From positions 1 to 33,620 of IMG/VR virus record IMGVR_UViG_3300044715_000425: 33,620 nt of DNA, one strand, 5' to 3'. This stretch comes from a virus. This document shows positions 7,705-32,313 of the stretch, in pieces (within the stretch, counting starts at the first letter, position 1; the number at the start of each line of letters is the position of its first letter). The position numbers and the translations under genes are program-made. The notes beneath the pieces are model-generated. The model was given only the letters and a program-made list of their open reading frames with translations, searched no databases and was not told the DNA's origin.

Positions 7705-7774
7705 GGACTCATGATGGAATCGAACCACCGTCATCCGGCTTTTCGCCAGCCCTCTGCCATTGAGGTAATGAGTC
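7705..7774 (-). tRNA. tRNA-like gene, possibly degenerate
   Basis: The minus strand folds into a cloverleaf. The acceptor GACTCAT/ATGAGTC is a perfect seven pairs. The D-arm CCTC-AATGGCA-GAGG carries the usual GG. The T-arm GGTGG-TTCGATT-CCATC has the normal loop. Discriminator C, and no encoded CCA (TAA follows). The anticodon arm is abnormal: the best fold is CTGG-CGAAAAG-CCGG with only four pairs, and there is no U before the anticodon (AAA in that register). It may be a decaying tRNA, a suppressor-like or mimic tRNA, or an integration-related remnant. It occupies one unit of the array, between two small protein genes. Confidence 0.55.
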
Positions 7775-8545: not shown

Positions 8546-8574
8546 TGAGCAGCGGATGTTCCACACCGATCCTA
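8546..8574 (-). repeat. Palindromic array element after recombinase
   Basis: It starts at the recombinase TAG: TAGGATCGGTG, seven bases, TCCGCTGCTCA. The second arm is the exact reverse complement of the perfect first arm seen elsewhere (TGAGCAGCGGA). Confidence 0.65.
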
Positions 8575-9798
8575 AAGCGACCACACCGGCAGAGTTTCAA
8601 TCTTCGCGACGATGTCTCTCAGGATCTCTTCACTCTGCAAGTACGATTCAGCGGTCATCTTTGCCACACCTTCCTCTGACACTGCATGGTGAAGCATGTA
8701 GCTCGATGCCGCGCGGCTCACATGCTTCGCCCACAGTGCTGACGATCCCTTCCTGAAGCTGGCCACATTCCTCTGGCCGAGACTCAACCGGATGATCGGC
8801 TTTCCCTCAATGCGTCTTGCGTCATCCGACAGGCCGGCACGCTCGAGCAGTTTCAAAAACTCCTCCGAGTAGGTCCGCGAGTTGTTCGCCATCGGAAAAA
8901 CTCGTTCCGGATCCAGCCCGCGGAACTGCTCAATCAGATCCCTTATTTTGGCCGACAGCGGAACCAACACGTCTGACGGCCGCTCAGCCGCTTCATCTTT
9001 TTTCGCCGTCTTGTGTACCAGATACCACGCCCAGCCGGCTGCATTGTGCAGGTCTTCCAGCACTGGGCATTGGCTAGATGTGATCACGCCCGACCAAAGC
9101 AGCCCCCTCTTCTCGGCCGATCGTGCCGCAAACCAATCCTGTGACCGAAACCCGTAAACGTAGTGAGCCAGCAGGCTTGTTTGCCAGAACACGGACGGCT
9201 TCACGCTCCCCAGTCGCGGCCATTTGCAGCCGTCCACAACGGACAGCATCGCCTGAAGTTCAGCCACCGTGACAGGAACGGCCTTGACTCTTCTTTGTTC
9301 TTCAGTCCGCGGCCTCAGCAGATTGATCGTTGATTTACTAACCGTCTCCGGCTTCTGCTTCAGCATTCCAGCCCGCACACAAGCCCCGGCCAACTTGCCG
9401 ACCGAGGACAAGGCTTTGCTGGCCATCGCCGATGAATTCCCTTTCGGCTGCGCCCGCAAAACCTCAGCGTAGGTTCTTAGAATCTTTGGCTGCTCAAGCA
9501 AGCTCAAAGATCTGCCGGCCACAACTCGGTGCTGCGTGCGTCCCCAGGCTTCGAACTTGTCGAGTGCGGACCTATTGTCTCTGATCGTCTTGATTGACAC
9601 CCGTTTTTCCTTGTCACTAGCTGAAAGCAGCTCGTCGTACAGATCCACCAAACTCCGGGACTCGATCACTTCAGGCTTTGCCGCTTCAATCACACTGCTC
9701 TGAGGTTCCGGAAACACCCGCAGAGGAATCTGGCCCACACAACACGCATCGAACGTAAACTGAAAATCACTGAGAACTGCGGACATTGCATAACTCAC
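8572..9798 (-). CDS. Divergent tyrosine recombinase / integrase
   Basis: 408 residues. N-terminal core-binding region about 45-160 (SLVDLYDELL, SIKTIRDNRSALDKFEAWGR). Catalytic region: YGFRSQDW gives Arg I at 218; VHKTAKK gives the beta-hairpin Lys at 263; SLGQRNVASF gives Arg II at 343; LHHAVSEEGV supplies His 370/371; AESYL gives the likely nucleophile Tyr386. The first His of the usual HxxR box is replaced by Leu340. It probably cuts and joins DNA at att sites for integration or excision. GTG at 9798 has AGGAA upstream; ATG at 9786 is an alternative. It is encoded inside the early operon on the same strand as everything else. Confidence 0.8.
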   Translation of the reverse strand: MSYAMSAVLSDFQFTFDACCVGQIPLRVFPEPQSSVIEAAKPEVIESRSLVDLYDELLSASDKEKRVSIKTIRDNRSALDKFEAWGRTQHRVVAGRSLSLLEQPKILRTYAEVLRAQPKGNSSAMASKALSSVGKLAGACVRAGMLKQKPETVSKSTINLLRPRTEEQRRVKAVPVTVAELQAMLSVVDGCKWPRLGSVKPSVFWQTSLLAHYVYGFRSQDWFAARSAEKRGLLWSGVITSSQCPVLEDLHNAAGWAWYLVHKTAKKDEAAERPSDVLVPLSAKIRDLIEQFRGLDPERVFPMANNSRTYSEEFLKLLERAGLSDDARRIEGKPIIRLSLGQRNVASFRKGSSALWAKHVSRAASSYMLHHAVSEEGVAKMTAESYLQSEEILRDIVAKIETLPVWSL

Positions 9799-13996: not shown

Positions 13997-14188
13997 TCAA
14001 TCACAATCACTGTCGTTGGACTCAATGACTTGCTTGATAGCGTCATATATCTCGTGACGATGGACAGACGTGTCCCGCGGAGCCGTAACTCCAAGCCTGA
14101 CTTTGTCGCCCCTAATCTCGATGACCATCACGCGGATGTCATCACCGATGCAGATTTCCTGATTGGCTTTACGGCTGAGAACTAACAC
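13997..14188 (-). CDS. csrA: CsrA/RsmA post-transcriptional regulator
   Basis: 63 residues: VLVLSRKANQEICIGDDIRV opening, then IEIRGDKVRLGVTAPRD and VHRHEIYDAI, a near-textbook CsrA. CsrA dimers bind GGA motifs in mRNA leaders and alter translation or stability. The GTG start has a perfect AAGGAGG six bases upstream, itself a possible CsrA site, suggesting autoregulation. A longer in-frame extension upstream (to 14527) lacks start signals and was not used. It is followed directly by a strong hairpin terminator. A phage copy could redirect host mRNA use; that is inference. Confidence 0.92.
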   Translation of the reverse strand: MLVLSRKANQEICIGDDIRVMVIEIRGDKVRLGVTAPRDTSVHRHEIYDAIKQVIESNDSDCD

Positions 14189-14450
14189 TAAACACCTCCT
14201 TGCTTTGTTGTTTGAAAAAACGGGCCGCAAATCTTTTGCGTCGGAGATCACCCGATCGGCTTTGATCCATGCCGAACCCGTTTGTGTGTATTCGGCCTCG
14301 CCATCCGTCATGACGAGGCCACGATCAGGAACGCCCTGACCGCTTCCGATCGTTGTTCCATGTTCGGTTGCTGAGTGCCGCACAGCCTGCCGAACGCAGC
14401 CGGGAGTTAACGCGATTGGACAAAGCCCACCTGCTACCCGGAAAGGTGTT
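14189..14450 (-). other. Gene-free csrA leader with hairpins
   Basis: I see no convincing gene here. The minus strand holds GGCCTCG...CGAGGCC (seven pairs) and CGCAAA-AGA-TTTGCG followed by GCCCG and T6. It also has several GGA motifs (ATGGAAC, ATCGGAAG, ACGGATGG, ATGGATC) ahead of the csrA Shine-Dalgarno. It may be a structured leader or a terminator for the upstream gene. The csrA frame happens to stay open through much of it. Confidence 0.4.
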
Positions 14451-14591
14451 TCAGTATGTCCGTCCGTATCTCTTGCGTATCTCACGTTCAATCCGTTTTT
14501 TCTCGGCACGGTCTTCAGCAATCTCAACAGATCCAGCCGCGAAGCAACCGAGCATCACGAGAACCAAAAAGGCGAGGCAACTATTGAGCAT
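14451..14591 (-). CDS. Small membrane protein or lipoprotein
   Basis: 46 residues: MLNSCLAFLVLVMLGCFAAG is a hydrophobic signal with a possible lipobox (MLGC), followed by a charged helix (EDRAEKKRIEREIRKRYG). ATG with GGGAG eight bases upstream, overlapping the upstream stop by 11 bases. Resembles tiny phage lipoproteins; function unknown. Confidence 0.55.
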   Translation of the reverse strand: MLNSCLAFLVLVMLGCFAAGSVEIAEDRAEKKRIEREIRKRYGRTY

Positions 14592-15411: not shown

Positions 15412-15651
15412 TCAGTGCTCCTTATGCCGGTCCCAGTCCATCAGTGAATCGTCGGTCATGTCGATCGTGCTAACTGGTTCACCGAGTGACAGACCTTTCG
15501 GAACACACACCACTGCTCCAGCTTCGACGAGTCGCACAGCCTTCCGAATCTTTTCCAGTGACTGCTGAGCAATGTCGATTGGCATTGGACTGCCTACTTT
15601 TTTCCGCCACCGTGCCATGAGGCTTTGAATTTCTGTGCGGTCGCTGCTCAT
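15412..15651 (-). CDS. Hypothetical protein
   Basis: 79 residues with an amphipathic helical middle (IAQQSLEKIRKAVRLVEAGA), acidic end (STIDMTDDSLMDWDRH). ATG overlaps the ParB-like gene stop (ATGA). No family recognised. Confidence 0.6.
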   Translation of the reverse strand: MSSDRTEIQSLMARWRKKVGSPMPIDIAQQSLEKIRKAVRLVEAGAVVCVPKGLSLGEPVSTIDMTDDSLMDWDRHKEH

Positions 15652-16628
15652 CGTGTGGCCTCCTGCTCAATAAGTTGCTCGACCAAATGATTCCCGTGGC
15701 ATCGCTCCGGAAAGCACCAGCAACCCAGAACCTTTCCAGATAGCGATGGAATTTTGACTTGCAAACTCGGCTTCAGATTGAAGTAGACCTCGAAGGAATC
15801 ACATACCGTTTCTCTGTCGCCATCCTCCCCGACAACGAACGGGTTTCCCCACTGTGTCCCTCGGTCGATCGGCAGAAAACAGCCATTCTCGCTGGCCCAT
15901 CGAATCAACTGGCGATCCGTTTTTTTGTTCGCAACGACGGTCTCACCTCGCTCGACTGCAGCGCGGCGTTCCTTTTCTGAATCGGTCCATTCGTCGGCGG
16001 ATTGCGGAACAATGTTCTTCGCAACCTTTGCGACCTCCTTTCCAACCGGCTTGCCTTCCTCCTTTGCCTTGCTGATGATCTCGTTCTGGCGAGCCTTCGG
16101 AAGATCTGCAATCTTTGCAGCAGCTGAAACTGCAACTTCTCCCCTGTCACATGCCGCAATCAGTTCTTTCGAGCCGGATGCAAGCACCTTTGCCGCTCGG
16201 TCGACTGACTTACCGGACACTCCAGCCGCTTCACCAGCCTTATCGCGTGACTGCCCGTTAAGGTTAGGACAATTGGCCTTACCTTTTACGCCACGTCCTT
16301 CACTCAAAGACTGGCGTTCCTTCGCCTGCTTTTCATAAACACCCTTGGCCCGACCTCCAACCATCGCCCTCTGCGTTTCGTCAAGATGACGACGATGCAA
16401 ATTCAAACTCAACACATAGGCGACCGGATCTTTTGGATGCACCTCGACCGTTAGTGGTTCAATACCAGCAAACTCACACGCCGCCCAACGATTGCGACCA
16501 TCAAGAATCATCCCGTCGCATATCTCGATCGGAACCAACTGGCCCCGCAATCCGATGTCCTCTGCCAGCGTCCGCAGTTCGTCTTCGTCCATCAGCGGAA
16601 AGATGTTTGCCGCCTCGTGATACTTCAT
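15648..16628 (-). CDS. ParB-like N-terminal domain fused to DUF4326
   Basis: 326 residues from ATG 16628, which overlaps the HNH stop (ATGA). Residues about 1-95 form a ParB/Spo0J-type domain (LVPIEICDGMILDGRNRWAA, then DPVAYVLSLNLHRRHL). The middle contains a helix-turn-helix-like region (GEAAGVSGKSVDRAAKVL). Residues about 235-320 match DUF4326 (DRGTQWGNPFVVGEDGD, then GKVLGCWCFPERCHGNHL). ParB-fold domains use CTP or nucleic acid; DUF4326 has no firm function. Possibly a DNA-binding regulator or plasmid/prophage maintenance factor. Confidence 0.75.
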   Translation of the reverse strand: MKYHEAANIFPLMDEDELRTLAEDIGLRGQLVPIEICDGMILDGRNRWAACEFAGIEPLTVEVHPKDPVAYVLSLNLHRRHLDETQRAMVGGRAKGVYEKQAKERQSLSEGRGVKGKANCPNLNGQSRDKAGEAAGVSGKSVDRAAKVLASGSKELIAACDRGEVAVSAAAKIADLPKARQNEIISKAKEEGKPVGKEVAKVAKNIVPQSADEWTDSEKERRAAVERGETVVANKKTDRQLIRWASENGCFLPIDRGTQWGNPFVVGEDGDRETVCDSFEVYFNLKPSLQVKIPSLSGKVLGCWCFPERCHGNHLVEQLIEQEATR

Positions 16629-16879
16629 TTCCCATGCTCCCTCTTGTGACAATCCCGACACAACAAACGCAGTTCTGCATCTGCGTATTCCCACGGCTCA
16701 CGATCTATCTGGTAGATCAGGTGGTGAAGCTGAATGTTCTTTGTGGCTCCACAGTCCTCGCATTGATTGCCTCTTGTTGCGAGTAGGGCCAGTTTCTTTC
16801 GTCGCCATCGAAAGTCAGCGAGCTTGTATTGGTAGCGGAAGCAATTTTTTTTTGCCTGTGCATGTGAGCAATGACCCAC
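16625..16879 (-). CDS. HNH endonuclease domain, probably expressed by frameshift
   Basis: An HNH domain: CEDCGATKNIQLHHLIYQ, then LRLLCRDCHKREH, with two CxxC pairs and the His-His catalytic block. KLADFRWRRKKLALLA precedes it, as in normal HNH proteins. The only separate start is a GTG at 16879 with no good Shine-Dalgarno. The frame lies -1 relative to the upstream 274-codon gene, and the two frames meet at an A9 run. A -1 slip on A AAA AAA would give a 305-residue fusion. It may be a programmed fusion or a sequencing or mutational indel. Confidence 0.7.
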   Translation of the reverse strand: MGHCSHAQAKKNCFRYQYKLADFRWRRKKLALLATRGNQCEDCGATKNIQLHHLIYQIDREPWEYADAELRLLCRDCHKREHGK

Positions 16880-18178: not shown

Positions 18179-18703
18179 TCATGACGCCCGTAGATGCTTC
18201 CGGACGCACCTGCGATTTACTCCAAGGATCTCTGCAGCTTCAGCAATCGTTGTTGTTCTGCCCATCACCACGACGTGGATGTTGTTCCTGCGGTTTCGTG
18301 CCTGATCTCGCATCGAGGCCCAGCGGCAATTTTCCGCACAATAGCCTTTTGAGTTATTTATGCGTTCAAGCGTCATTCCTTTTGGTGGCTCTCCCATATC
18401 AGATAGAAAGATTGCGAACTTGCGCCACGATCGATCGACGGTTATCCCTCTTGCTCCGTAGTTTTTGTAGTCCGGGTTGCTTTGATTGCAGCACCTTGAA
18501 ACCATGTTCATCCATGCAATTTGCGCTCGCGATCGCTTTTTAAATGTCGCCCCGCTTCGATTGCAGTTTCCGCACGACTTTGCGGTTCCTCGCTTCACTC
18601 TGCCAACAATCATCACCTTTCGTTTTCCACATGAGCACTCAAAAACGGCAGAGTACACACTTTGTTTTGTACTCCTGAATGCAACACCAACCTGAATCAA
18701 CAT
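18179..18703 (-). CDS. HNH/AP2-type endonuclease-like protein with C-terminal helix-turn-helix
   Basis: 174 residues from ATG 18703 (GGAG nine bases upstream). A zinc module with CxC at 23/25 and CxxC at 44/47. At about 61-140 the phage HNH-like block: WMNMVSRCCNQSNPDYKNYG, ARGITVDRSWRKF, DMGEPPKGMTLERINNSKGY, ENCRWASMRDQARNRRNN. A C-terminal helix-turn-helix of the NUMOD kind follows (TTIAEAAEILGVNRRCVRKH). The family includes homing and free-standing nucleases. It is the first gene after the promoter and terminator-like leader at 18.7-18.85 kb. Confidence 0.75.
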   Translation of the reverse strand: MLIQVGVAFRSTKQSVYSAVFECSCGKRKVMIVGRVKRGTAKSCGNCNRSGATFKKRSRAQIAWMNMVSRCCNQSNPDYKNYGARGITVDRSWRKFAIFLSDMGEPPKGMTLERINNSKGYCAENCRWASMRDQARNRRNNIHVVVMGRTTTIAEAAEILGVNRRCVRKHLRAS

Positions 18704-18718
18704 TGTGTTCACTCCAAG

Positions 18719-18758
18719 AAAAAACCCGCGCACGGGCGGCTAGACCTGTGGCGGGTTT
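18719..18758 (-). terminator. Intrinsic terminator between promoter and HNH gene
   Basis: The minus strand reads AAACCCGC, 21 bases, GCGGGTTT continuing as TTTT, a stem of eight pairs with six T at the end. It ends the virion operon. Because the promoter at 18822-18849 lies upstream of it, it would also attenuate that promoter. Confidence 0.65.
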
Positions 18759-18792
18759 CTTGATCGGGCCTGAGCCCGAAGGTTCGATTAAA

Positions 18793-18919: not shown

Positions 18920-19420
18920 TCAGGGAACTGGTGATTTCCACGCAACCGCGTAGGTGTCCTTCCAGTATTCATTCCCGCTAACATCAATCTGCACAAACCC
19001 GGCGTAATGCAGTTCCTCCGCAAGCTGGTCCTGGCTGATGTTTCCATAGTGCTCGTCCGGATGCAATGGCCCGCCGTCGATTGCTGAATGCGGATCTCTG
19101 CCGGGACCGGCGCAGGTGATCAATAGTTTTCCGCCAGGACGAAGCCAGCTCGCGGCGTGAAAGATCAACGAGTCCCAGACCATGCAATGTTCAAGCACCT
19201 CCGCACAGACGACCATATCCACCTTTTGCGTTGGCTCGTAGTCGAGCGCATCGCAGACCACGTCGACCGCTGGGCCTGCGATTAGGTCAAGGCCGATCCA
19301 TGTGGCTCCGGGAAAGTGTGCCCGCGATGAACCGTTGATGTCACGACTGCCCACCTCGATCACTGAAATTGTTTCGGTAGTCGCGTGCTTCGCGATGAAC
19401 TCAAACGCGCCTGCGTGCAT
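18920..19420 (-). CDS. Class I SAM-dependent methyltransferase
   Basis: 166 residues. VIEVGSRDINGSSR (about 20-33) is the SAM-binding motif I, WIGLDLIAGPAVDVVCDA gives motif II, and DMVVCAEVLEHC and LRPGGKLLITCAGPG give the later motifs of the methyltransferase-11 type. The substrate is not visible; small molecule, sugar or protein are possible. ATG overlaps the upstream stop (TAATG), so it is coupled to the oxygenase. Last gene of the virion operon. Confidence 0.85.
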   Translation of the reverse strand: MHAGAFEFIAKHATTETISVIEVGSRDINGSSRAHFPGATWIGLDLIAGPAVDVVCDALDYEPTQKVDMVVCAEVLEHCMVWDSLIFHAASWLRPGGKLLITCAGPGRDPHSAIDGGPLHPDEHYGNISQDQLAEELHYAGFVQIDVSGNEYWKDTYAVAWKSPVP

Positions 19421-20010
19421 TACGTAGCCCTTTCAAATGTTGCTGCTGTCTTGCCGATTTCGCCATCATGCGACCACGCAAACAGTGCGAGCGTTTTTCG
19501 ATAGTTCGCATCCGGCGCGACTGGCAACACCTCGTGCCATTGATTGTCGGTCGTAAACACAACAGCCGTACCGAACTCGGGAGCAATCAACACATCGGGT
19601 TCTGAATCGAGATTTGATTCCAATCGCAACTGACCGCCGTCGCTACTAGCGTTCCATCGCCTGTTGATATTCATCACGATGGAATGTGTTCGCCGCCAAA
19701 AGTGAATGGGATGTGTCTCAGCGTCGAGGTGTCTGCCAAGAAATCCTCCCGGCGGCATCATGTGCAACCCAGCCGCGTGTGCGTCGTAATCCACAAACGA
19801 CTCGCCAATGTATGGAATGACAGCCAACGCCAGTGCGTCTAATGCTGCAAGACATGCCGCCGGTATTCGCGCCCGATCCATGCTGCCGAACTTATTTGAC
19901 GTTGCGCCGTTGTAGCGATGCCAGAACGGCCAGAATTGATCAGGGAACGCCGCTTCGGCCGCAAGGCACAACGAACGAGGAATTGCGTTCTTGATTATTT
20001 TAACGCCCAC
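19420..20010 (-). CDS. 2-oxoglutarate/Fe(II) oxygenase, prolyl-4-hydroxylase-like
   Basis: 197 residues from GTG 20010, with AGGAGG seven bases upstream. The iron triad is HLD (His94, Asp96) and His159 in QWHEVLPV; Arg171 in NYRKTLALFAW binds 2-oxoglutarate. GGQLRLES and GTAVVFT are the usual core strands. Such enzymes hydroxylate protein or small-molecule substrates with O2 and 2-oxoglutarate. Overlaps the glycosyltransferase-like gene by 11 bases. Its place in the virion operon suggests a virion protein or cell-surface target. It looks P4H-like rather than TET/JBP-like, so DNA as substrate is less likely. Confidence 0.82.
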   Translation of the reverse strand: MGVKIIKNAIPRSLCLAAEAAFPDQFWPFWHRYNGATSNKFGSMDRARIPAACLAALDALALAVIPYIGESFVDYDAHAAGLHMMPPGGFLGRHLDAETHPIHFWRRTHSIVMNINRRWNASSDGGQLRLESNLDSEPDVLIAPEFGTAVVFTTDNQWHEVLPVAPDANYRKTLALFAWSHDGEIGKTAATFERAT

Positions 20011-21274
20011 TACAAGCCTCCTGATACTTTGCCCACTCTGGCCACACGACATCGTGCCAGTATTGCTGGTCATACATTCGCCTGCTGTCATTCAAAAACA
20101 GGCACGCAGTTTCGCGAGGATCGCACATCTTGCCAGGCCAGCTTTCCGTTCCTGCAAACCATTGGTCAACTGATCGCCAGTTCCGTTTGCCGATCTCAGT
20201 GAGCCTCCACCAAAAAAATGTACCCGAGAAGGCCCAGTTGTGCCACTTGCCGAGCAATCCGAATTCCTTAAATGATCCCGCCATCAATGACGTTCTCAGT
20301 GCGTTGTAAACAGATGCCCAATCATCGAGGCAGGATTGGTACATTAAGTCCGTCCAGTCCCGCGTATGCTTTGGATCTTCGTACTTCTGCCCCTTTGCAT
20401 GTGCCGAAAACACGACTTCGTTCGCACCTGCTGACTGTGGCTGCAACAGCTCCAGCATCGGAAGCCACGTTACAACCTCTCGCAGCTTTGGCTGATTAGG
20501 CTTGATGATGTGGTGATCGAAGTGTATTCCCAGCGATTCGGCAAACCGGATCACCTCATCCGGCGGCCGCGAATCTTTATCGTGGACAACGCCGAGGATT
20601 CGCTTACCGTTAAACAGTCCCCAACGTTTTGCGAGCTGTTCCAAATTCCACTGCCATGAATCGCCGCGATTAGATGCCCAAACGTGATACGTAAGATGCC
20701 GTATTGATGAGACAAATGGGCCATGCTCGATTCGCGGCCCATCGGCTTCTGATCTCCAGCCTGTGTACGGTTTTCGCCCGTTGCTTGTCGGCCGATGGCG
20801 TCGGTGCGGTCTCGGAGTTGCACACTTCGTTGTTGCAGTCGCTAGCACACCAGAAACAATTTCCCCGATCCGCTTTCGCCGGCTTTCTTTATCGCCGTGC
20901 GTTGCTCGCCATGACGGCGGCCATGAGATTTCAGCATAGAGTTTCTGCACAATAGCCGCGTGATCATGGCTCGCCATGCGGTTCAGCGACAGCAGATACG
21001 CCTTGCAACTGCCGCACGAAACAGGCTGACCAGTGTCTGCTTGAATCGCTGCCATCATCAGTGTGCCAGCATTGGAGCAGTCCGTGCATTTTGTTGCGCG
21101 TGACACAACGCCAGATCGCCGCTGCGGAGCCCGAATCTGGCTTGGCTCAGGCTGCGTTCCATACAGAACATCAATTGCCGCAACCGCACCGCGTTGACAT
21201 TTTGCGAAATGCACGTCGGCAACGACTTTTTGCCTGCGTTCGCAAAACCCAGCCATAACGCATTCGCACTTCAT
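20000..21274 (-). CDS. Glycosyltransferase-like protein with N-terminal cysteine clusters
   Basis: 424 residues from ATG 21274 (ATGA overlap with the Cys-rich gene). Residues 1-95 contain cysteine clusters (CECVMAGFC, CTDCSNAG, CGSCKAY), likely zinc sites. From about 190 the protein resembles glycosyltransferase-like proteins: LTYHVWASNRGDSWQWNLEQ, NGKRILGVVHD, EVVFSAHAKG, and especially HNWAFSGTFFWWR (about 345-357), matching the H-x-SG-FWW block of that group. Probably transfers a sugar. The acceptor is unknown; a tail protein, including the adjacent Cys-rich one, is a possible target. Confidence 0.6.
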   Translation of the reverse strand: MKCECVMAGFCERRQKVVADVHFAKCQRGAVAAIDVLYGTQPEPSQIRAPQRRSGVVSRATKCTDCSNAGTLMMAAIQADTGQPVSCGSCKAYLLSLNRMASHDHAAIVQKLYAEISWPPSWRATHGDKESRRKRIGEIVSGVLATATTKCATPRPHRRHRPTSNGRKPYTGWRSEADGPRIEHGPFVSSIRHLTYHVWASNRGDSWQWNLEQLAKRWGLFNGKRILGVVHDKDSRPPDEVIRFAESLGIHFDHHIIKPNQPKLREVVTWLPMLELLQPQSAGANEVVFSAHAKGQKYEDPKHTRDWTDLMYQSCLDDWASVYNALRTSLMAGSFKEFGLLGKWHNWAFSGTFFWWRLTEIGKRNWRSVDQWFAGTESWPGKMCDPRETACLFLNDSRRMYDQQYWHDVVWPEWAKYQEACSGR

Positions 21275-22605
21275 ATATTCAGGGTTCCTGAGCAAATTAC
21301 CGTGCAGCAGTTTAACCGCTTCCCGGCACAATCACCGACTGCACCGATCGGCTCTTCGTAACAATCGACCTCGACCTCAAGAGGAAAAATCGCCGAAACT
21401 CCAGTTGTTGGATCACAAGTGCAGGAGATTGGCCGCACCCAGGTCCACGAAACGGCCGTCGTGGCACCTCCCGGTGTTTCTCCCGTGTCGCCAGTTTGCA
21501 GCAACGTAGTGCCGATCCACAGCCGTAACCGGTCACACACTTGATCGTCGCCTGGCTCAGCGAACAGGGCGGAACATTCCAACTTCAAAATAATGCCCGT
21601 TCCGCAAGGCGTCGATGAACACGTTCCCCCCGTTTCGGAATACAAAATTGAACTCAATGAGGGGACTGTCGTGGTGTCGTAAATAGCTTCCGTCTGACAA
21701 GGTTCGTCGCCAGGCATTGTGACGAAAACGCCAGATTCACCATTGCACCCAGAGATGCTGAAGGGAATGTCTGCAAGAACTCCGAACGGGTGTGAAACAT
21801 CATAACGAACGGGCAGACAGCAGAACTCGCACGGGCCTTGCTGATTGCACGCGCACTGCTTGCATTCAATGCTTATAATCGTTCCGTCGTACAAGGTCAC
21901 GATTGCTGACATATCAGCACAGCCCGTCACGAATACCGGATCCTGTTCCTCTCCATCAGCCGTAAGCGTGACAATGCATTCCCCGGTGTACTCGTCTCTG
22001 CCGAGCGCAAACGACAGGTCATAATACCCAACCGACCCAGCCCAAACCGGCGGATCGCAAGCATACGCCGTATCAAACAGCTCCCCCGTGAACACGTCGC
22101 CACCAGGCTCTGTAATCGTTACGCAAACGCTGTTACACGAACACCGGCAAACGCCGCAAAAGTGATCTCGACAGCCCGTGTCAGGATCGTCAATCAAATG
22201 CAGTTCCCGTGGCTCATGCTTTGACCAACGCAACGTGCCTTCCAGATATGCGGTCGCCACTTGCACTTCGCCGCCTGGATCTCTGCAGCTTGCTCCCTCG
22301 TAACACGTCGCTCTGTAGACCTCCTCGCCGCCAAGCGTGACGACGTACTCACATTCGCCGTCGTAGTTTCTTTCCCAAAACGCCGTGAATGAATGGCCGC
22401 CAACGGTTCCTGTCCATGATGCCGTGGAAAACTCCGCGGAGCCGTGTTGTATTTCTTCGTATTCGACCTCCCACTCGATGCACAGTTTGCAGGGAATGAC
22501 GCCGCAACATTGATCTGTCGGGACTGTTTCACACGCCTCAAATGTTCGTTCCTGACACGGCTTCAGGCGTGTTGGCGATGACCTGCGAAGATACCTCGGA
22601 GGCAT
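21271..22605 (-). CDS. Very cysteine-rich tail-region protein
   Basis: 444 residues with about 37 cysteines, many as CC, CxC or CxxC pairs (QCCGVIPCKLC; CGVCRCSCNSVC; CKQCACNQQGPCEFCC). Between them are repeated beta-type segments around G-E-C-x-V-T-L (GECEYVVTLGG, GECIVTLTADG), so the protein looks like two or more related domains. Cytoplasmic proteins rarely carry this many cysteines, so metal binding or disulfides formed outside the cell are likely. ATG 22605 overlaps the upstream stop (TAATG). Location after the tape measure suggests a distal tail or receptor-binding role. Confidence 0.65.
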   Translation of the reverse strand: MPPRYLRRSSPTRLKPCQERTFEACETVPTDQCCGVIPCKLCIEWEVEYEEIQHGSAEFSTASWTGTVGGHSFTAFWERNYDGECEYVVTLGGEEVYRATCYEGASCRDPGGEVQVATAYLEGTLRWSKHEPRELHLIDDPDTGCRDHFCGVCRCSCNSVCVTITEPGGDVFTGELFDTAYACDPPVWAGSVGYYDLSFALGRDEYTGECIVTLTADGEEQDPVFVTGCADMSAIVTLYDGTIISIECKQCACNQQGPCEFCCLPVRYDVSHPFGVLADIPFSISGCNGESGVFVTMPGDEPCQTEAIYDTTTVPSLSSILYSETGGTCSSTPCGTGIILKLECSALFAEPGDDQVCDRLRLWIGTTLLQTGDTGETPGGATTAVSWTWVRPISCTCDPTTGVSAIFPLEVEVDCYEEPIGAVGDCAGKRLNCCTVICSGTLNI

Positions 22606-23423
22606 TACGCGCACTCCGGTTGCGGACAAAGATCGTCAATGATCCACCGCGGCGAGCAGTATCCGGTCAATGGGTAGTGATACGTCGCGCGGCCTGTTCC
22701 GCCTTCAAGATCGTTCGGCGTTAATCCTCGCAGGTAGTTGCACAGATCGTAGACATTGTATGTGCCGTCGTAGTTGGCCCCCGGTGGAGTTTTGTTGCAT
22801 CCTGCCGTGTACCACGTTGCAGTGACAACAAGCGTTGGTTCGTCGACGTAATCGGTGTCGGGGCACAAAACGTCGTTAATTGTGAACCAGATCGTATGCC
22901 CGCCGCCGGTGCCGCCGCCAGCGAACCTCCCAATCAGCGCCCGGTCATCCGATTCCTCATTCGCTCGATGATGCCCGTAAACAACAAACGGCCCCGAGCC
23001 TTCCTCGACTTCCCATGACCCAACAATCGGCAAATACTCAATTCCGGGTTCGCTCGGATCTGCCCCGGTCATGATCACCACGCCAAAACGATACGCCCAG
23101 CCAACGCCCGTTTCTGTCGACGATGGCACAGCAATCGGAAACTGCGAATTGAAAAGAAACTCGCCATCTGTCGCCGTCGGCTTTTCGACGTCGATGGCAG
23201 TCACGTTGTTAATGTTCCGCGTGCCCGTAACTCTCATACACGCATAGGCCGGAATGACCTCGCTGCCAGTGTTGTAGACAAAAACACGATGCGGAGAGGG
23301 CTCATCGAGCGTTCGGCGGTTTGGAAAGTGCTGCGTTTGCTGCGCGGGGAGCTGCTTCTGCGACAGGTACCACTGGTACATGTCTCGCATTTTTTCCACG
23401 GACAGAACGCCGATTGGCTCCAT
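22605..23423 (-). CDS. Distal tail-region protein, unknown
   Basis: 272 residues. The N-terminal helix MEPIGVLSVEKMRDMYQWYL is followed by beta-rich sequence with RVFVYNTGSEVIPAYACMRV, a style common in virion surface proteins, then a Gly-rich loop at about 166-175. C-terminus is Cys/Pro rich (CPQPEC). Start overlaps the upstream stop. No family name. Confidence 0.6.
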   Translation of the reverse strand: MEPIGVLSVEKMRDMYQWYLSQKQLPAQQTQHFPNRRTLDEPSPHRVFVYNTGSEVIPAYACMRVTGTRNINNVTAIDVEKPTATDGEFLFNSQFPIAVPSSTETGVGWAYRFGVVIMTGADPSEPGIEYLPIVGSWEVEEGSGPFVVYGHHRANEESDDRALIGRFAGGGTGGGHTIWFTINDVLCPDTDYVDEPTLVVTATWYTAGCNKTPPGANYDGTYNVYDLCNYLRGLTPNDLEGGTGRATYHYPLTGYCSPRWIIDDLCPQPECA

Positions 23424-30120: not shown

Positions 30121-32313
30121 TTACGCCCCGTTGTGCTTGTACAGTCCGCGATAGTCGATGGCGGCCACGCCAAATGTCTGACGCACCTTGTACTTGTAAA
30201 CGTCCTTGTCGAAGTCCCACTCGTTTTCGAGCACCGGAGACTGTTCGCCTTCGAGGAACGTAATTTCGACCGTGTCAACTTGGCTGTTATTCGCAGCCAG
30301 GTACCAAGCCGTTGAGCTGTTAGCATCCAACAGTGGCTCGACAATAACTTTCAGTGGTCGATCACCGTTCGGCCCGTAGATGTTCTTGGTGTTGCTGTTG
30401 CCAGCCGCGGAACCGCCGACCGATGGATCTGCAATAGATCCCAGTAACTGCAGTGCCGTCGCAGAAATTGCCGCAGGAACGATCAAAAACGCTGGCTGAA
30501 TGTTTAGGATCACGTCCGACCGTAGGCCCTTCTTGGTCATCATGGAGATAAACGCAGTGTTCAGCGTTCCAACTGCCGGAGCACCGGCACCCGTCGCATA
30601 GTTTGCGTGACCCCCGGCAGTCGTCTGAGCTGTCGCGTTGAACAACAGGCCAGTATCAGCCATTGCGGCATTCGCTGTCAGAACGCCGTAGACGGCCTGA
30701 TTTTGCAAACGTCGGCACGCTGCTCCCTGCATTGCTGGAATGCGGCTGATAGCGTCAAGATCATCATTGACAACGGTTTCCCATGTCACTGTGAACATGT
30801 TGCCGTACTTGTTGATCTTGTACGTTTCCTTTGTGTCCGACATTCCCGCGTCTTTGTACTCCTGTCCTTCAGGGACCATTTCAGGAGTGCCCATTTCGCT
30901 AAATCGAATGCGGTTGATGTTTTTGAAGTCCGCAGTCGTTCCGGCATCTCGTGCCCACATGTTCCAGGTATATGGGGCTTCTTCGTATCCTGCCAGAAGC
31001 GTCTTGTTGGCCGCGTCAAGCAGAAGATTTGAAAAACTCCCAGTGGTGTGGTACGCATCACGCTGAATTCGGAATCGGTTCATTGATCCCGGATGTCCCA
31101 TTGCAACCAGTGCGATATCCTTGGCAGCCATGCGTCGAACGTCGCAGCCCATCTTTTCCGCGTACATTTCGGCAACGCGGCCCAACTTCATGCTGACGAA
31201 GTCCTGATGTCCTGCGGCTGGATTTGCCAGCGTCTGGTTCCGCATTCCGCTGGCTCGCAGAGTTCGCATGATCAGACCATCACGGGCCGCTGCAAACAGC
31301 TTGTCATCGGCTGATTCTGTGACGCTGACACGTTCGGTCGACTGACCGGCAGGTTTATTGGCCATTCGCTCCAAGATCCTTGTTCTTGCGGTGTTGAGGT
31401 CAACGCCGTCGTCACACAGACTGTCGGCAACTGATCGCTCGATTTTGTGAACAGTGCAAAGAGCCTGAATCTCCTTGCGTCGCTTTGCGTCAGCTCGCAA
31501 CGCGCGGCTGATAGCTTCCTCAACCTTCTTCTTGTCTTCTTCTGGATCAGTCGCACCGTCCATGTTCTCGACTTTCTTTTCCTCTGGTGGCGTCGTGTCG
31601 CCGTCCATGTTTTCCACCGGCTCTGGCGGTTCTGCTGTCGCAGACGTGCCAAGCTTGCCAACGACCCACGCCAAGATCTGGTTTGGGTCTGTCATGCCTT
31701 CTGGGAGCCCCATTGCTGCGAGCTGGCCCAATAGTGCCTCGTCCATTCTTTTCACCTTTCTTTCGAGGTCTGTGTAGGACCTGCGGACAGTTGAGTGCTC
31801 GTCTGCCCCAGTGGCACAGATCGAAGCGTTATGTGGCTGCCATCTCACATGGATGACCGCCGGACCATCGATCACCGCTCCGCGTTTTGTCGTGTAGCTT
31901 TGGCCATGCGGCACAAAGAGCGATTCCATTGGAACGGCTGTGATTGAAAAGTCTGTGATGTGTCCTTCATCCATTCGCGTTCGGATAACTTGCGATTCTG
32001 CATCGCTCGCAAATGACGGCACGCCGTGAAGCTCACCGTCGATGACTTGCATCTGGCGAATAGAACCAAAAATGTTTCTGACGCTTCTGTCGTCGTGCGA
32101 ATCTACAATTGGGATCTGCGATTGATTGGCGCGAAGCACAACGCCATCCATCAACAAAACTTCATTGATGACGTACCCGCGATCCTCGTCGTATCGCCTG
32201 ACCGGTGTTTCAGTGGCAATAACGACGTCGGAAACGCCTGACGAAATCCCTACTGACCGCATAACGACGGATGATGTTTTAAGCGGCTGCAGCTTGCGTT
32301 TTTTTGTAGTCAT
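30121..32313 (-). CDS. Prohead protease-major capsid protein fusion
   Basis: 730 residues in three parts. Residues about 30-170 are an S78-type prohead protease (IPIVDSHDDRSVRNIFG with His73; HITDFSITAVPMESL with Ser123). Residues about 180-330 are a charged scaffold-like linker with a repeated VENMDG block (about 232 and 248). Residues about 340-730 are the HK97/Mu gpT-like capsid subunit (TAGGHANYATGAGAPAVGTL, VLENEWDFDKDVYKYKVRQ). The protease should remove the scaffold during head maturation. ATG overlaps the portal stop (ATGA). Confidence 0.9.
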   Translation of the reverse strand: MTTKKRKLQPLKTSSVVMRSVGISSGVSDVVIATETPVRRYDEDRGYVINEVLLMDGVVLRANQSQIPIVDSHDDRSVRNIFGSIRQMQVIDGELHGVPSFASDAESQVIRTRMDEGHITDFSITAVPMESLFVPHGQSYTTKRGAVIDGPAVIHVRWQPHNASICATGADEHSTVRRSYTDLERKVKRMDEALLGQLAAMGLPEGMTDPNQILAWVVGKLGTSATAEPPEPVENMDGDTTPPEEKKVENMDGATDPEEDKKKVEEAISRALRADAKRRKEIQALCTVHKIERSVADSLCDDGVDLNTARTRILERMANKPAGQSTERVSVTESADDKLFAAARDGLIMRTLRASGMRNQTLANPAAGHQDFVSMKLGRVAEMYAEKMGCDVRRMAAKDIALVAMGHPGSMNRFRIQRDAYHTTGSFSNLLLDAANKTLLAGYEEAPYTWNMWARDAGTTADFKNINRIRFSEMGTPEMVPEGQEYKDAGMSDTKETYKINKYGNMFTVTWETVVNDDLDAISRIPAMQGAACRRLQNQAVYGVLTANAAMADTGLLFNATAQTTAGGHANYATGAGAPAVGTLNTAFISMMTKKGLRSDVILNIQPAFLIVPAAISATALQLLGSIADPSVGGSAAGNSNTKNIYGPNGDRPLKVIVEPLLDANSSTAWYLAANNSQVDTVEITFLEGEQSPVLENEWDFDKDVYKYKVRQTFGVAAIDYRGLYKHNGA

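What the first reader, a model, noticed from the sequence alone, without database searches (positions are those of the whole stretch)
18920..21274. Glycosyltransferase-like, P4H-like oxygenase and methyltransferase trio coupled to the tail operon
Three overlapping genes directly follow the tail genes and precede the terminator. The oxygenase keeps the full iron and 2-oxoglutarate residues and the methyltransferase a clear SAM motif; the first gene has an H-x-SG-FWW glycosyltransferase-like block. Co-translation with virion proteins suggests hydroxylation, glycosylation and methylation of a virion protein, or of a surface glycan. I know of no described system with this exact set in this place.
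Basis: partly seen in the sequence, partly recalled or inferred. Interest (0 to 1): 0.6.

Follow-up and report, generated by a model that had tools for sequence, protein, structure and literature searches.

The report
Phage tail-linked glycosylation cassette with hydroxylase
Right behind its tail genes this uncultivated phage carries three coupled genes, a sugar-transferring enzyme, an iron-dependent hydroxylase and a methyltransferase, that recur together in related phages and most likely decorate the phage's own tail with a modified sugar.

Summary
The three genes are real and correctly placed (window 18920-21274, minus strand). They are coupled by overlaps of 4, 11 and 1 nt and followed by a strong terminator hairpin. 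The first protein is a GT-A-fold glycosyltransferase of a family absent from Pfam, with an exchangeable Cys-rich N-terminal domain and an invariant HxK where DXD is usual. The second is a PF13640 2OG/Fe(II) oxygenase with an intact active site. The third is a class I methyltransferase with an atypical motif I. A viral scan seeded with the oxygenase alone found 15 loci: 14 carry a homologous methyltransferase (the 15th a weak Pfam hit) and 13 carry this GT family. In close relatives the cassette follows a Cys-rich, adhesin-like gene with a hypervariable C-terminus. The oxygenase alternates there with a GT2-like gene in strict step with GT clade, while the methyltransferase is shuffled freely. 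Distant phages carry homologous GT-oxygenase or oxygenase-GT-methyltransferase clusters, some beside sugar-nucleotide genes. Best explanation: a virion (tail) glycosylation cassette whose oxygenase hydroxylates the acceptor, protein or sugar. Virion glycosylation by GT plus methyltransferase is known; the linked hydroxylase and the swap pattern appear undescribed. Substrate, sugar and hydroxylation site are unknown, and nothing was tested at the bench.

The parts
20000..21274 (-). Glycosyltransferase, 424 aa: Cys-rich N-terminal domain (about 1-150, C63xxC66, C87xxC90), low-confidence linker 154-177, GT-A-like catalytic domain about 190-420 with H292xK294 and SGTFFWW
   Evidence: Model pLDDT 81, catalytic part mostly above 90; Foldseek PDB GlcAT-P 1.1e-4 prob 1.0, viral GTs to 1.7e-9; invariant residues in 26 relatives
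19420..20010 (-). 2OG/Fe(II) oxygenase (P4H/PHD-like), 196 aa from GTG at 20010 (ORF opens at 20091)
   Evidence: PF13640 2.9e-14; PDB 4iw3 (P. putida PPHD) 1.6e-8; active-site residues invariant in 19 relatives
18920..19420 (-). Class I SAM methyltransferase, 166 aa
   Evidence: Methyltransf_23 2.7e-8, PHROG 32762 2.6e-16; E22, G24, D45, E74 conserved in phage relatives
18715..18765 (-). Intrinsic terminator closing the operon
   Evidence: -23.1 kcal/mol, z -4.7, stem followed by T run
21271..22629 (-). Cys-rich adhesin-like gene directly upstream: two tandem beta domains (about 48-137, 167-256), conserved N-terminus 1-268, hypervariable C-terminus; candidate substrate
   Evidence: Alignment of 14 relatives; model good only for the beta domains; present with the GT in the capsid-sampled records
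22605..23423 (-). Conserved distal tail gene upstream (272 aa), syntenic in relatives
18179..18733 (-). HNH endonuclease just downstream; HNH genes also interrupt cassettes in relatives (possible mobility)
   Evidence: PHROG 2.4e-42; L012, L016, L027

Best explanation
A late, translationally coupled virion-glycosylation cassette. The GT transfers a sugar (unknown) onto a phage structural protein, most likely a distal tail protein such as the adjacent adhesin-like protein, perhaps docking through its Cys-rich N-terminal domain. The 2OG oxygenase hydroxylates a carbon of the GT's acceptor or product (a protein side chain or a sugar). The methyltransferase caps the glycan by O-methylation. Shown: the genes, folds and active sites, the coupling, and the conserved neighbourhood. 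Inferred: that they act in one pathway, that the target is the virion, and the order of steps. Side-chain versus sugar hydroxylation is about even: the oxygenase co-varies with the GT (favours acceptor-level action), but distant oxygenase relatives sit inside sugar-nucleotide and GT clusters (favours sugar).
For: Overlapping genes and terminator. GT-A fold. Oxygenase-seeded scan: 15 loci, homologous MT in 14, this GT family in 13. The oxygenase occurs with three methyltransferase subfamilies (MT_23-like, MT_11-like, MT_24-like), so the function is kept while genes are replaced. GT and MT_24 domains fused in L005, L031, L063. In the same slot, relatives carry GT2-like genes, GT2 fusions, or the Cys-rich domain fused to a phosphoribosyltransferase (L009, PF00156 1.4e-7). 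Oxygenase with clade-B GT 0, with other GTs 17; GT2-like gene with clade B 17, with others 0. The MT is shared between oxygenase-plus and -minus cassettes (5 label changes against 5.1 for shuffles). Remote relatives: AG-345-E08 has a GT of this family (hhalign 5.1e-8) overlapping an oxygenase, then a GDP-mannose dehydratase-like gene; Zuko has oxygenase-GT-MT-GT. Precedents: mycobacteriophage GTs plus O-methyltransferase (PMC11600133 citing Freeman 2023), chlorovirus A064R, mimivirus L230 (PMC9614988).
Against: No substrate, sugar or modification was observed. No residue of the adhesin-like or neighbouring tail protein tracks the oxygenase after multiple testing. The adhesin C-terminal type does not track cassette type. 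Some relatives with the same head genes but another tail tip show no such cassette. The GT/oxygenase association may reflect one ancestral split of the GT rather than many events.
Confidence: 0.72

Rival explanations
1. The trio remodels the host's surface polysaccharide (receptor masking or superinfection exclusion) rather than the virion.
For: The distant oxygenase-bearing cyanophage cluster L207 holds what reads as a full sugar-nucleotide pathway (read by eye), and some phage GTs are known to act on host glycans.
Against: Late-operon position, translational coupling to a tail gene, and in capsid-sampled records co-inheritance with the adhesin-like tail gene (5 of 5 with it, 1 of 20 without). 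No membrane-anchoring or flippase partner was recognised beside the trio.
Confidence: 0.13
2. The trio hypermodifies phage DNA: an oxygenase makes a hydroxylated base that the GT glycosylates, as in TET/JBP systems.
For: 2OG oxygenase plus GT plus methyltransferase is a set seen in DNA hypermodification (own knowledge), and the window encodes a DNA methylase.
Against: The oxygenase is PF13640 with no Tet_JBP match. The window's DNA methylase is N6_N4 type and lies 12 kb away. The cassette travels with the tail tip and includes GT2 and phosphoribosyltransferase swaps.
Confidence: 0.04
3. The oxygenase is a PPHD-like protein prolyl hydroxylase acting on host EF-Tu or ribosomal protein, and is only a neighbour of the glycan genes.
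For: Closest solved relative by sequence is P. putida PPHD 4iw3 (1.6e-8), next P4H and OGFOD1.
Against: The PF13640 relationship is remote. The oxygenase never occurs away from GT and MT genes in the loci found, and a late co-translated gene is an odd place for a host-takeover enzyme.
Confidence: 0.05
4. Cargo ('moron') genes gathered near a recombination hotspot with no shared pathway.
For: HNH genes in and beside the cassette, slot replacements, hypervariable adhesin end.
Against: Replacements stay within glycan chemistry, GT-methyltransferase fusions occur, and GT and oxygenase co-vary.
Confidence: 0.06

Closest known systems
Mycobacteriophage virion glycosylation (cluster O and others; Freeman et al. 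2023, known here only through PMC11600133 and PMC13313380)
   Same: Phage-encoded tandem GTs with an O-methyltransferase, reported to modify capsid and tail-tube proteins
   Different: No 2OG oxygenase mentioned in what I could read; cassette not described as an exchangeable unit behind an adhesin; gene homology not tested (records not in the collection)
Streptomyces phages Zuko and KimJongPhill, genes 106-109 / 107-110
   Same: Oxygenase-GT-methyltransferase-GT with homologous oxygenase (about 30%) and methyltransferase (about 40%)
   Different: GTs are GT2 type rather than the HxK family; located near the genome end among small genes, not in the tail operon; no function published that I found
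Chlorovirus PBCV-1 A064R (two rhamnosyltransferases plus methyltransferase on the capsid glycan; PMC9614988)
   Same: GT plus SAM methyltransferase building a viral capsid glycan; domain 2 is a cation-independent GT of a new family with a relative in the planctomycete Lacipirellula; a 638-aa protein M1IF74 (the length of A064R) is among our GT's fold matches
   Different: Eukaryotic virus, N-glycan, no linked oxygenase; that M1IF74 is an A064R homologue, and which of its domains matches, was not verified
Mimivirus L230 / animal LH3 (lysyl hydroxylase plus glycosyltransferase; PMC9614988)
   Same: 2OG hydroxylase and GT coupled; hydroxylysine is then glycosylated; LH3 and COLGALT1 appear among fold matches of our GT
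   Different: Different oxygenase subfamily, collagen substrate, DXD GT, no methyltransferase; fold matches are weak (E about 1e-3)
Rhamnan synthesis protein F (PF05045) family
   Same: Two viral proteins annotated as RgpF or RgpF-like are fold matches; recalled HTK and GxMFW motifs resemble HxK and SGTFFWW
   Different: No Pfam match at E up to 5 for any of 26 members and no PF05045 match in the window

Membership tests
GT-A fold glycosyltransferase | Rossmann-like GT-A fold | tested here: met
   AlphaFold model catalytic part above 90 pLDDT; Foldseek prob 1.00 to GlcAT-P, GPGS; E 1.1e-4; TM scores modest, target-normalised 0.48
GT-A fold glycosyltransferase | DXD metal/nucleotide-sugar motif | tested here: not met
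   Invariant H292xK294 at the end of the strand where DXD is usual by my reading; cation-independent GT-A enzymes exist
RgpF (PF05045) | Match to the family profile | tested here: not met
2OG/Fe(II) oxygenase, PF13640 | Profile match over cut-off | tested here: met
   54.2 bits against cut-off 27
2OG/Fe(II) oxygenase, PF13640 | HxD...H iron triad and 2OG-binding R/K | tested here: met
   H121, D123, H186, R198 invariant in 19
Prolyl 4-hydroxylase (function) | Hydroxylates peptidyl proline | not testable with these tools
   Only remote similarity to PPHD/P4H
Class I SAM methyltransferase | Rossmann SAM motifs (E-x-G-x-G-x-G, acidic end of strand 2) | tested here: inconclusive
   E22, G24, D45 conserved, but motif is GSRDING not GxGxG; profile matches significant
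Phage virion glycosylation system | GT and O-methyltransferase encoded together by the phage | tested here: met
Phage virion glycosylation system | Glycan present on virion proteins | not testable with these tools
   Needs virions
TET/JBP DNA hypermodification | Tet_JBP-type oxygenase | tested here: not met
   Only PF13640/13661 matches (plus a sub-threshold DUF3459) in Pfam scan
Anti-phage defence system | PADLOC model match of the set | tested here: not met
   Only generic 2OG and a weak mad2 match; no system

The most novel reading that the evidence does not exclude
An oxygen-dependent, exchangeable tail-glycosylation cassette: the oxygenase creates a hydroxyl on a distal tail protein that a dedicated metal-independent GT then glycosylates and a shared methyltransferase caps, a phage counterpart of hydroxylysine or hydroxyproline glycosylation, swapped for a two-GT version in sister phages to change the antigenic or receptor-facing surface.
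Probability: 0.25. Interest if true: 0.8.

Novelty: new variant of a known kind. Interest (0 to 1): 0.52.

Why it matters
Phage virion glycosylation is known from few systems and in most cases the enzymes and linkages are undefined. A conserved GT-hydroxylase-methyltransferase unit behind a hypervariable adhesin gives a testable case of post-translational hydroxylation of a phage structural protein or phage glycan, a GT family not in Pfam, and a natural swap experiment (hydroxylase versus second GT) on nearly the same tail.

Tried and rejected
Sequence searches of the GT in Pfam, PHROGs, NCBIfam, PDB and cultured phages gave nothing; the fold comparison was needed. Single-sequence viral scan with the oxygenase gave nothing; the alignment scan worked. 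Genome scans for the GT gave no relative. The capsid protein gave a Microbacteriaceae MAG contig (60%) and one short Planctomycetaceae match, so the host stays open. An attempt to name the modified residue by correlating tail-protein residues with the oxygenase failed after multiple testing. The adhesin structure was too poor for a fold search. RgpF membership was tested and not met. DNA hypermodification and defence were considered and set aside. Freeman 2023 and the Corndog record could not be read.

Full report
Observation. The window is a 33,620-base IMG/VR virus record. Reading the minus strand, portal, capsid/protease, neck, minor tail and tape-measure genes run into four small tail genes, a Cys-rich 452-aa protein (21271-22629), then the trio and a strong terminator hairpin (18715-18765, z -4.7). 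The trio is real and overlapping; the oxygenase start is better placed at GTG 20010, 196 aa.

First protein. No sequence family matched it. Its model (26-row alignment) has mean pLDDT 81 with the catalytic part mostly above 90. Foldseek against the PDB returns almost only GT-A enzymes at the top: glucuronyltransferase GlcAT-P (E 1.1e-4, prob 1.00), glucosyl-3-phosphoglycerate synthase, ArnC, glycogenin, and the GT domains of LH3 and COLGALT1. TM scores are modest. The viral library gives phage and giant-virus relatives to 1.7e-9 (target TM 0.79), including two proteins annotated as RgpF or RgpF-like and a 638-aa protein (M1IF74; PBCV-1 A064R also has 638 aa, identity not verified). DXD is absent: H292xK294 is invariant in 26 of 26. 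A064R domain 2 is reported as a cation-independent inverting rhamnosyltransferase of a new family with a relative in the planctomycete Lacipirellula (PMC9614988). That makes a metal-independent GT plausible here, as inference. The N-terminal 150 residues are Cys-rich with CxxC pairs. This part is kept at about 60% identity where the catalytic half is replaced, even by a phosphoribosyltransferase (PF00156) followed by a probably HAD-like part in L009. That suggests a docking module; phosphoribosyl donors are used in bacterial glycan synthesis (PMC11127046, abstract only).

Second and third proteins. The oxygenase is PF13640 (54 bits, cut-off 27) with all four catalytic residues invariant in 19 relatives; remote solved relatives are PPHD, P4H, OGFOD1 and PiuC. 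The methyltransferase matches Methyltransf_23 and PHROG 32762 but has an unusual motif I.

Comparative anatomy. Starting from the oxygenase alone, 15 viral loci were found. Fourteen hold a homologous methyltransferase and the fifteenth a weak Methyltransf_24 match (21.3 bits, cut-off 26.3) in the next gene; thirteen hold this GT family, one is cut by the contig end, and one has Zuko-like GTs. Methyltransferases of three Pfam subfamilies serve in the place, and in several phages GT and methyltransferase are fused. In sister phages the oxygenase is absent and a GT2-like gene stands there instead (weak Pfam match, 0.004 at best). GT clade and occupant agree perfectly (17/0/0/17). This may be one evolutionary split and the P value (8.6e-10) should not be read as independent events. 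The methyltransferase crosses freely between both cassette types. Hence it probably does not need the oxygenase's product, whereas GT and oxygenase probably act on linked steps. Both are inferences.

Unbiased check. Sampling by capsid protein instead, among 25 scored records those with the adhesin-like gene carried the GT's domain in 5 of 5 and those without it in 1 of 20. Of the latter, five inspected records show an unrelated tail tip with no recognisable cassette, and others carry other Cys-rich GTs there. The cassette therefore goes with the tail tip rather than the head. The adhesin-like gene has a conserved N-terminus (two beta domains) and hypervariable C-terminus, but C-terminal type does not follow cassette type, and no residue of it tracks the oxygenase, so it is only a candidate substrate.

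Remote relatives. Marine virus AG-345-E08 has a short GT of this family (hhalign E 5.1e-8, aligned over HxKG and SGxFWW) directly overlapping an oxygenase, followed by a GDP-mannose dehydratase-like gene and a PfkB kinase. AG-345-L05 has the oxygenase inside what reads as a fucose-type cluster with a methyltransferase (by eye). Zuko and KimJongPhill have oxygenase-GT-methyltransferase-GT. The methyltransferase family also sits among GTs in phiPsal1 and S-CBS4 beside head genes.

Mechanism and verdict. The best reading is a virion glycosylation cassette (0.72). Within it, hydroxylation of a protein side chain before glycosylation, and hydroxylation of a sugar, are about equally likely. Precedents exist for each pair of activities: GT plus O-methyltransferase on phage virions (PMC11600133 citing Freeman 2023), hydroxylase plus GT in mimivirus L230, and GT plus methyltransferase in A064R (PMC9614988). 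In a limited search I found no description of the three together in a phage. Novelty: new variant of a known kind.

Noticed in passing
window 13997-14527, minus strand: A 176-aa protein ends in a CsrA domain (PF02599, 2.9e-22), a host-type RNA-binding regulator carried by the phage.
   Followed up: no
window 15648-16694, minus strand: 348-aa ORF combining ParB-like partition/nuclease similarity (PHROG 4715, 2.1e-18) with a C-terminal DUF4326 (PF14216, 4.1e-19).
   Followed up: no
window 30121-32313, minus strand: Head maturation protease and major capsid protein fused in one 730-aa protein (PHROG 4523, 3.1e-123); over 130 viral contigs encode close relatives.
   Followed up: partly
window 8572-9798 and 7705-7774, minus strand: Weak tyrosine-integrase-type match (PHROG 1, 3.8e-5) with a tRNA-Phe(aaa) nearby: possibly a temperate phage.
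   Followed up: no
L009:5992-7407: Cys-rich docking-type domain fused to a phosphoribosyltransferase and a probable HAD-like part directly behind the adhesin, possibly a pentofuranosyl-transfer variant of the cassette.
   Followed up: partly
L005, L011, L014, L015, L019, L042, L065 (adhesin-like ORFs of 638-708 aa): In-frame insert of about 230 residues between positions 87 and 91 of the adhesin-like protein, perhaps an added domain copy.
   Followed up: no
L041:6152-6724 and L043:5726-6265: An extra gene (MTLTEIANRIGCDKGTTAHE...LLEIGIDKGLSLRMW), apparently another methyltransferase type, directly behind the clade-B GT.
   Followed up: no
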